Shown: positions 55,436-56,820 of the stretch, in pieces
Position numbering within the stretch: the stretch's first letter is position 1
How the letters are laid out: every line of letters begins with the position of its first letter
Assembly (NCBI RefSeq): GCF_900116295.1
Contig: NZ_FPAF01000001.1
Span: 310,001 to 374,000 of the forward strand
Direction: 5' to 3'
From: Bacillus sp. 103mf
GTDB lineage: Bacteria; Bacillota; Bacilli; Bacillales; Bacillaceae_G
Length of the DNA: 64,000 nt
Notes under the pieces: generated by a model
Databases searched by the model: none
Told to the model about the DNA's origin: nothing
The model's input: only the letters and a program-made list of their open reading frames with translations
Position numbers and translations under genes: made by a program

Positions 55436-55459
55436 AAAAGACACGAAACCGTGTCTTTT
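55436..55459 (-). terminator. terminator overlapping the recA stop
   Basis: AAAAGACAC / GTGTCTTTT stem; the recA stop codon lies within its arm. Confidence 0.8.
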
Positions 55460-56820
55460 AATCATTAAGAAGAGTCATATCTTCTCCACTTCCAGATGCA
55501 GCCTCTTCACCAATGCCATGATGCTCACGAATAAAGAATGCTATTTCATCTGTAAGTTCTGGATTTTCTTTTAAGAATTGCTTCGCATTTTCGCGTCCTT
55601 GTCCTAAGCGTTCCTCATTATAAGAATACCAAGCTCCGCTCTTTTGAACGATATCAAGTTCAGATGCCATATCTAAAATTTCGCCTTCTCTTGAAATTCC
55701 TTCTCCGTACATAATATCAACTTCTGCAACGCGGAAAGGAGGCGCTACTTTATTTTTTACTACTTTCACTTTTGTTTTATTACCAACAATATCGTTACCT
55801 TGCTTTAACTGCTCAGCACGACGTACTTCTAGACGCACTGTTGAATAGAATTTCAATGCACGTCCACCTGGAGTTGTTTCTGGCATAATTCTATAGATTT
55901 TCCATCTCTATAGCGCGGACTATCTCTTCATCTCTTTACAGAGAGCCTTGCACTTCCAGCAGGAGCCTATCTTCTGCCGTACCCTACTCAGTTAACTTTA
56001 AAAGTTCTTTTCGGTAGTCTCTACACCTTCTTCATATCATTCTGAAGCTTGGCACGGTATTACCCTATTATTTGGAGGGCTTCACCGTTAGCAGCTATAT
56101 AGCTACACCCTTAGGCAATAAGGTTCACAAGGTTTTTTGAACATGCTATCACTAGCAAGGGAAACCCATAGTAAACTCCTTAATCTATAAAGATTAAGCA
56201 ACCATTTGTTGATTTCCAAACATTACTCCAACTTTTTCACGAATTTGGTTAATGAAAATTGCGATTGTTTTTGACTTGTTAATCGCACCAGATAATTTAC
56301 GAAGAGCTTGTGACATTAAACGTGCTTGTAAACCGACGTGAGAGTCACCCATTTCTCCTTCAATCTCTGCTTTTGGAACAAGTGCTGCTACAGAGTCAAT
56401 AACAATAATATCAATTGCACCGCTTCGTACTAATGCTTCAGCAATTTCTAGTCCTTGTTCTCCTGTATCTGGTTGAGATAATAATAATTCATCAATGTTA
56501 ACACCTAGTTTTTGTGCATATACAGGATCCATTGCATGTTCCGCATCAATAAATGCCGCTTGCCCACCTTGACGCTGTACCTCTGCAATCGCATGTAAAG
56601 AAACTGTTGTTTTACCTGAGCTTTCAGGTCCATAAATTTCAATAATACGGCCTCGTGGATAACCACCAACTCCAAGGGCAACATCAAGTGCCAATGAACC
56701 ACTTGGTACAGTAGAAATCTTACGTTCCGCTTGCTCTCCTAGTTTCATAATAGAGCCTTTACCGAATTGTTTTTCTATTTGTTTTAACGCCATATCTAAT
56801 GCCGCTTGACGATCACTCAT
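55458..56820 (-). CDS. recA: recombinase A, interrupted by a group I intron
   Basis: RecA coats single-stranded DNA, drives strand exchange and triggers LexA self-cleavage. Exon 1 is 56820-56212 (203 codons) and exon 2 is 55883-55458. Joined they give a 344-residue RecA in frame, with Walker A GPESSGKTT, IDAEHAMDP, IVIDSVAALVPKAEIEG and the L2-loop start VGVMFGN|PETTPGG across the junction. Without splicing, translation reads five intron codons (QQMVA) and stops. cinA lies upstream on the same strand, as is usual. Confidence 0.96.
55884..56211 (-). ncRNA. group I self-splicing intron in recA
   Basis: The 328-base intron begins right after exon 1 ...GGAAAU and ends in G before CCAGAA, the U and terminal-G rule for group I introns. 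An internal guide GGGUUUCC (about 56158-56165) can pair with GGAAAU to form P1 with the required U-G pair. Hairpins CAAC / GUUG and CUUAAUC / GAUUAAG fill the loop. Core-like segments AAUAAUAGGGUAAUACC, GUAGAGACUACC and AAGAGAUAGUCC match P3-P7 landmarks. No homing-endonuclease ORF fits. A recA group I intron is known from Bacillus anthracis. Confidence 0.93.

What the first reader, a model, noticed from the sequence alone, without database searches (positions are those of the whole stretch)
55458..56820. recA carries a 328-base group I intron inside the L2-loop coding region
The two recA halves join in frame (203 + 141 codons) only if 55884-56211 is removed. The boundaries obey group I rules (exon U, intron-terminal G), a guide sequence pairs with the exon end, and core-like P3-P7 segments are present. 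The stop after five intron codons means RecA supply depends fully on splicing. Group I introns in recA are known from B. anthracis, so the novelty lies in which strain carries it and whether splicing responds to stress.
Basis: partly seen in the sequence, partly recalled or inferred. Interest (0 to 1): 0.75.

Follow-up and report, generated by a model that had tools for sequence, protein, structure and literature searches.

The report
Self-splicing intron inside bacterial recA gene
The DNA-repair gene recA in this Bacillus-like genome is interrupted by a self-splicing RNA intron of an already published kind, and relatives at the same spot in other bacteria still carry the DNA-cutting gene that lets it spread, with signs that it moved between species recently.

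Summary
It has P1 with the exon U/intron G pair, a terminal G, and a P2-P9 fold with compensatory changes. A recA group I intron is reported from B. anthracis, so the kind is not new. The ten recA copies scanned all score below Rfam's cut-off.
New here: introns at the same recA nucleotide occur sporadically in the order of Bacillus haynesii (9 of 397 genomes; 5 of 41 in one family). Five of 13 relatives carry an intact ~207-residue open frame in the P1 loop whose only solved-structure match is 3r3p, 'Mobile intron protein' (I-Bth0305I by recall). In three genomes of one family the 984-nt intron differs at 1-2 sites while recA exon 1 differs at 21-49 of 609, pointing to recent transfer; shared exon flanks, as homing leaves, are clear in one comparison only. 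The window's intron looks like an endonuclease-less derivative: its P1 stem reads IKEFTMGFPC-stop, identical to a relative's last ten endonuclease codons. Splicing, cutting and stress response are untested.

The parts
56212..56820 (-). recA exon 1, 203 codons, ends ..VGVMFGN
55884..56211 (-). group I intron, 328 nt, terminal G at 55884
55458..55883 (-). recA exon 2, 141 codons plus stop, begins PETTPGG
56212..56217 (-). 5' exon GGAAAU, P1 partner of the internal guide
   Evidence: GGAAAT in 10 of 10 intron-bearing (also in the four further ones) vs 16 of 80 intronless recA
56160..56165 (-). internal guide GUUUCC (P1); UGG at 56166-56168 can pair with 3' exon CCA (P10)
56194..56196 (-). in-frame stop (TAA) after five intron codons
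56152..56184 (-). IKEFTMGFPC-stop, matching the last ten codons of the homing endonuclease in L083; also the 3' side of the P1 stem and the guide
56126..56132 (-). P3 5' strand (3' strand 55946-55952)
   Evidence: other letters but paired in phage introns
56091..56123 (-). two hairpins between P3 and P4 (56109-56123 and 56091-56106)
   Evidence: 5 of 12 pairs with changes on both sides
56054..56088 (-). P4 and P5
56025..56053 (-). P6 and P6a
   Evidence: 4 of 4 P6a pairs with changes on both sides
56015..56019 (-). P7 5' strand GACUA (3' strand UAGUC 55918-55922), guanosine-binding helix (role recalled)
55957..56006 (-). P7.1 (55994-56006) and P7.2 (55957-55979), marks of the IA class
   Evidence: P7.1 pairs fail as aligned in L088 and L089
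55891..55944 (-). P8 (55931-55944) and P9 (55891-55913)
56855..56905 (-). recA promoter-like site (TTGGCA-18-TATAAT, 56884-56855) and LexA-box-like CGAATAAACGTTCG (56892-56905); consensus matches only
   Evidence: LexA consensus recalled; 4 box matches in the window (this place counted on both strands) vs 3.9 expected
55436..55459 (-). terminator-like hairpin after recA

Best explanation
A self-splicing group I intron (IA type by its P7.1/P7.2) sits between RecA residues 203 and 204. The recA pre-mRNA folds; a guanosine attacks at GGAAAU|CAAC held in P1, the freed exon attacks after the terminal G of the intron (P10 aligning CCA), and full-length RecA mRNA results; a ribosome entering the intron stops after five codons. 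The element is an endonuclease-less descendant of a mobile recA intron: the full form has an EDxHD-type homing endonuclease gene nested in the P1 loop, whose last codons double as the 3' strand of the P1 stem and the guide. The full form would spread by cutting uninterrupted recA next to this site and being copied in by recombination. Shown by sequence: anatomy, fold, shared site, intact endonuclease frames in relatives, near-identical introns in more divergent recA genes. Inferred: splicing, cutting, homing, and the direction (loss rather than gain) of the endonuclease.
For: Anatomy. Fold: 68 pairs, 97.3% of cells paired, 14 pairs with changes on both sides against 6.5 in shuffles (0 of 500 as high) and 0-5 with slid partners; P3 pairs with other letters in phage introns. 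Same recA site in 9 of 397 genomes of one order and 5 of 41 genomes of one family, one of them counted among the 9. Endonuclease: intact frame in L083, L086, L088, L133, L134; only PDB sequence match at E<=10 is 3r3p 'Mobile intron protein', E 1.5e-16; dN 0.22-0.25 with dS above 2 between the three diverged types. Mobility: L132(=L088)/L133/L134 introns differ at 1-2 of 984 sites while exon 1 is 92.0-96.6% identical; L132/L133 differ at 1 of 92 exon-1 sites next to the intron and 48 of the next 517. Remnants of the endonuclease C terminus in endonuclease-less copies: 24 residues at 58% in L135, 13 identical in L081 and L084, 10 identical in the window.
Against: No splicing or cutting was measured. 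Rfam score is below its gathering cut-off, as for the 9 relatives scanned. The short remnants overlap RNA that the P1 stem and guide need anyway; only L135's reaches clearly beyond it. Co-conversion is shown by few comparisons: L132/L134 differ at 2 of 92 then 43 of 517 upstream, but downstream 5 of the 6 differences lie within 144 nt of the intron; L133/L134 show no step upstream (3 of 92, 18 of 517). Trees of the wider set do not settle transfer: each data set rejects the other's whole tree (AU p 0.009 and 0.0009), but three single-clade tests do not reject (p 0.13-0.32). General recombination of a recA segment could mimic co-conversion. The transfer evidence concerns relatives, not the window's copy.
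Confidence: 0.85

Rival explanations
1. The intron is ancestral and endonuclease-less in this lineage; the endonuclease gene invaded the P1 loop of other copies and ran its frame into existing intron sequence.
For: The remnant codons coincide with RNA that P1 and the guide need; the endonuclease-less form is the commoner one (8 of 13 relatives).
Against: L135 keeps 24 endonuclease-like residues (58% identity to L083's), and L081/L084 keep 13 identical to those of L083, their close kin with the full gene.
Confidence: 0.2
2. A non-splicing insertion: recA is a broken gene here and the cell lacks RecA.
For: The Rfam match is below gathering score and no RNA data exist.
Against: Both halves are open and cover the RecA model completely; the fold is held by compensatory changes; GGAAAU is kept in 10 of 10 interrupted genes.
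Confidence: 0.02
3. An intein or a group II intron.
For: Both are known insertions in bacterial genes, and recA inteins exist (recalled).
Against: The insert has a stop after five codons, so it is not translated through; RF00028 matches end to end and the only other family listed at E<=10 was an unrelated lncRNA at 11.6 bits.
Confidence: 0.005
4. The near-identical introns in L132, L133 and L134 reflect ordinary recombination of a recA segment between related species rather than endonuclease-driven homing.
For: Flanking exon sequence is shared too, and only the comparisons with L132 show a step in divergence; homologous recombination within a family is common (general knowledge).
Against: The intron is more alike than either exon and carries an intact, selected endonuclease gene.
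Confidence: 0.35

Closest known systems
recA group I intron of Bacillus anthracis (Ko, Choi and Park 2002; seen only as cited in PMC3984707 and PMC1995217; the paper is not held)
   Same: Group I intron in the chromosomal recA of a Bacillus; probably the same element or a close allele (an inference, not compared).
   Different: Sequence could not be compared here; no tool named the window's organism.
I-Bth0305I, EDxHD homing endonuclease; in a recA group I intron of phage 0305phi8-36 (host gene recalled; enzyme family in passages of PMC3943268; structure 3r3p)
   Same: The endonuclease in relatives of the window's intron matches 3r3p over 92 residues and also sits in recA.
   Different: The window's copy has only about ten codons of it; the relatives lie in genomes of bacterial species; the phage record was not in the collections, so introns and sites were not compared.
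Phage introns with a similar core: Geobacillus virus E3 (tape-measure gene), Staphylococcus phage Machias (nrdE), IMG/VR contigs L130 and L131
   Same: 73-79% identity over the longer matched parts of the core; 7-bp P3 (6-bp in L131) with other letters; similar hairpins between P3 and P4 seen by eye in E3, L130 and Machias, not counted.
   Different: Other host genes; the Machias intron holds an HNH endonuclease.
IStrons BcISt1/CdISt1 (PMC4227781, passages)
   Same: IA2 group I introns in Firmicutes with P7.1 and P7.2.
   Different: They carry a transposase part and lie in many different genes; the relatives here that lie in recA all share one site.

Membership tests
Group I intron | Exon U paired with intron G in P1, intron ends in G | tested here: met
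Group I intron | Conserved core P3-P9 with crossing P3 and P7 | tested here: met
Group I intron | Rfam RF00028 gathering score | tested here: not met
   33.7 bits against 50; of 9 recA relatives scanned, 8 listed with at most 45.4 bits and L083 not listed at E<=0.01. A curators' cut-off, not a biological feature
Group I intron | GTP-dependent self-splicing | not testable with these tools
   needs the bench
Subgroup IA2 | P7.1 and P7.2 between P7 and P3 | tested here: met
   (P7.1 86.8% of cells paired, failing in L088 and L089 as aligned); use as IA2 mark from PMC4227781; the P9 subdomains of IA2 were not examined
B. anthracis recA intron | Same nucleotide position and sequence | not tested
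   published sequence and paper not held
EDxHD homing endonuclease (relatives, not the window) | Sequence match to I-Bth0305I catalytic domain | tested here: met
   3r3p_A, E 1.5e-16, residues 111-202; identity of 3r3p as I-Bth0305I recalled; active-site residues not checked
EDxHD homing endonuclease (relatives, not the window) | Cuts uninterrupted recA next to the intron site | not testable with these tools
   needs the bench

The most novel reading that the evidence does not exclude
The recA intron is a living selfish element of Bacillales-type genomes: its endonuclease cuts the gene of the very recombinase that must repair the cut, and it has crossed species boundaries recently, taking recA flanks along. 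The published type of recA intron, as in this window, is its decayed form, with the last endonuclease codons kept because they are also the P1 stem and splice guide.
Probability: 0.45. Interest if true: 0.6.

Novelty: new member of a known kind. Interest (0 to 1): 0.42.

Why it matters
The intron itself is a published kind. What adds to it: the review PMC3984707 (passage) says there is little evidence that bacterial introns move horizontally among bacterial species; three near-identical 984-nt introns with an intact endonuclease in more divergent recA genes are such evidence, within one family. Homing into recA is a paradox worth testing, since the repair that installs the intron needs RecA. 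A practical point: the ten recA copies scanned all fall under Rfam's cut-off, so annotation that relies on it may call recA broken.

Tried and rejected
Two of the 11 matches (L090, L091; 41-47 bases, E about 7e-4) show no RecA and were dropped as chance. In the order of an Enterococcus 6 of 246 genomes matched over 26-42 bases, in that of a Planococcus 1 of 150 over 24 bases, in that of a Staphylococcus 0 of 120, in that of an Alicyclobacillus 1 of 59 over 39 bases with L088's core as query; none of L123-L129 or L137 held RecA. In the large draws only a few first-look candidates a genome were scored (2 of up to 24), so all these counts are lower bounds. 80 recA loci (the best 80 of at least 592): 0 of 80 interrupted at this site. 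The 80 are not matched to the intron hosts in kinship or GC, so the GGAAAT comparison (16 of 80 vs 10 of 10) is rough.

Rfam's own P3 (aligned with many mismatches) was set aside for CCUUGUG/UGCAAGG, because the other choice lies in a varying hairpin and the chosen one is re-paired in E3 and L130. Within the recA introns this P3 hardly varies, so its support comes from the phage introns.

Horizontal transfer from trees of the ten introns: inconclusive. Intron core identity (87-98%) hardly follows exon third-position identity (Spearman 0.25, p 0.10), but constraint on the ribozyme could give the same.

Searches with no result: intron in plasmids; endonuclease in phages and plasmids at E<=1e-3 and in viral contigs; two exact intron patterns in viral contigs (a third gave L130 and L131). 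PHROGs gave weak matches for the endonuclease, best an unknown family at 1.9e-5 and an HNH endonuclease family at 7e-5 over its N-terminal part. Papers: PMC3984707, PMC4227781, PMC3943268, PMC1995217 seen in passages only; others only as search listings. A bacterial recA intron with an EDxHD endonuclease was not seen in the listings, which cover open-licence papers only.

Full report
What is there. On the minus strand recA is split. Exon 1 (56212-56820) gives 203 codons ending KVGVMFGN; exon 2 (55458-55883) begins PETTPGG and gives 141 codons plus stop; 328 nt (55884-56211) lie between. Searched as two separate pieces, the halves match Pfam RecA at positions 2-200 and 199-262. The insert begins CAACAAATGGTTGCTTAA, so translation into it stops after five codons.

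Is it a group I intron? At Rfam's curated cut-off nothing in the window matches, and a whole-window run at E<=0.1 also lists nothing. A run on 701 bases gives Intron_gpI over its full length, 33.7 bits, E 8.7e-7. Of 9 recA relatives scanned, 8 are listed at E<=0.01 with 28.4-45.4 bits and L083 is not listed; none reaches 50 (the four later ones, L133-L136, were not scanned). Reading the alignment of ten introns by hand gave P2, P3, two hairpins, P4, P5, P6/P6a, P7, P7.1, P7.2, P8, P9. Counted on the alignment, 97.3% of 678 cells pair, 14 of 68 pairs show changes on both sides (6.5 expected from shuffles; 0 of 500 as high), and sliding the partners by 1-3 columns drops pairing to 29-43%. The structure was read from these sequences, so the slid control favours it; the changes on both sides are the firmer part. 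They lie in the two extra hairpins, P6a, P7.1 and P8. P3, P4 and P7 hardly vary within the recA set; P7.1 fails as aligned in L088 and L089. P3 pairs with other letters in Geobacillus virus E3, IMG/VR contig L130 and phage Machias, and over 6 pairs in L131. Folded alone, the window's intron with its exon end is only modestly more stable than shuffles (z -2.05), and that fold is not the group I fold throughout.

An extra feature is the pair of hairpins between P3 and P4. In the alignment this part falls in an insertion and a badly paired P3, which probably explains the low scores. Whether the hairpins are described in print I could not check; two searches found nothing of use and the 2002 paper is not held.

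Relatives. With the window intron as query, 11 of 397 genomes drawn from the order of Bacillus haynesii matched; 9 lie in recA, all at GGAAAT|CC(A/T)GA(A/G)AC, the same nucleotide as here. In one genus 3 of 14 genomes carry it; in the family of G387 1 of 16; in the family of G228 5 of 41, four of them new. It is therefore sporadic. The best of the 397 is 86% identical to the window over exon 1, so the window's own close kin seem absent from that sample.

The endonuclease. Of 13 recA relatives, five (L083, L086, L088, L133, L134; 964-985 nt) have an open frame of 219-225 codons, about 207 from its likely start, in the P1 loop. Its only match among solved structures at E<=10 is 3r3p_A, 'Mobile intron protein', E 1.5e-16 over residues 111-202; I recall this as I-Bth0305I, founder of the EDxHD family, which PMC3943268 describes (passages). 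Pfam gave nothing above its cut-offs. A profile of three copies found it in 3 of 397 genomes, all three in recA introns. Between the three diverged types dN is 0.22-0.25 and dS above 2 (saturated), so the protein has been kept. The frame runs through the guide sequence and stops at the TAG after TTGC. Its last part can pair with the intron's 5' end: predicted duplex energies -30 to -43 kcal/mol, lower than all of 200 mononucleotide shuffles in each of five copies, two of which are near-duplicates of a third.

The window as a decayed copy. Read in the endonuclease frame, L135 keeps 24 C-terminal residues (58% identical to L083's), L081 and L084 keep 13 identical ones, the window keeps IKEFTMGFPC-stop, L085 aligns over 15 at 53%, L082 and L087 over 10 at 80-90%, L089 over 8, L136 over 5. 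These codons are also the 3' strand of the P1 stem and the guide, so the short ones alone could be RNA constraint; L135 speaks for deletion. I take loss of the endonuclease as likely, about four to one.

Recent movement. L132 (the same locus as L088), L133 and L134 come from three genomes, by the tool's description one per species. Exon 1 differs at 49, 45 and 21 of 609 positions in the three comparisons (L132/L133, L132/L134, L133/L134); the 984-nt intron differs at 1, 2 and 1. The first 420 nt downstream differ at 8, 6 and 10. For L132/L133, 1 of the 92 nearest exon-1 positions differs, then 48 of the next 517; downstream 1 of 276, then 7 of 144. For L132/L134 the upstream step is there too (2 of 92, 43 of 517), but downstream 5 of 6 differences lie within 144 nt. 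L133/L134 shows no step upstream (3 of 92, 18 of 517). So transfer of the intron is well supported, since intron and endonuclease are more alike than recA, while a co-conversion tract rests on the comparisons with L132, in effect one contrast; ordinary recombination is not excluded. A tree comparison of the ten wider introns does not settle transfer there.

What is known. Two papers list recA of B. anthracis or of Bacillus species as interrupted by a group I intron (PMC1995217; PMC3984707; passages). Not shown: splicing in this strain, any response to stress, the strain's name. A LexA-box-like site and a good promoter match lie upstream of recA, so the intron would be transcribed with an ordinary SOS-type recA; the number of box matches is what chance gives in 64 kb, only the place is suggestive.

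Noticed in passing
L093 2453-2754 (Geobacillus virus E3): The tape-measure gene is annotated as two genes (GP42 to 2498, GP43 from 2809) with a group I intron match (48.7 bits to RF00028) around the gap; no intron is annotated there.
   Followed up: partly
L130 1024-1325 and L131 near 3781-3833 (IMG/VR contigs): Group I introns with the same core pattern (L130 33.6 bits to RF00028; L131 not listed); in L130 it lies at the end of a frame that looks like a PAPS-reductase-type gene (recalled), in L131 the gene is unknown to me.
   Followed up: partly
L114 1001-1051 (uncultured 735-kb phage): A group I intron-like P6/P7 stretch appears to interrupt a tRNA gene (read by eye only).
   Followed up: no
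L083/L081/L084 exon 1: Third positions of the last 50 codons before the intron are more alike (84%) than the first 153 (64-66%) between L083 and its two kin, a possible co-conversion trace; the first 40 codons of exon 2 are not (65-68%).
   Followed up: partly
window 55884-55886: The intron's last bases make ATG in frame with exon 2, giving a mechanical 142-aa frame. Of 13 relatives, 9 also end in ATG, GTG or TTG and 4 (L083, L086, L087, L089) do not; no ribosome site was looked for.
   Followed up: partly
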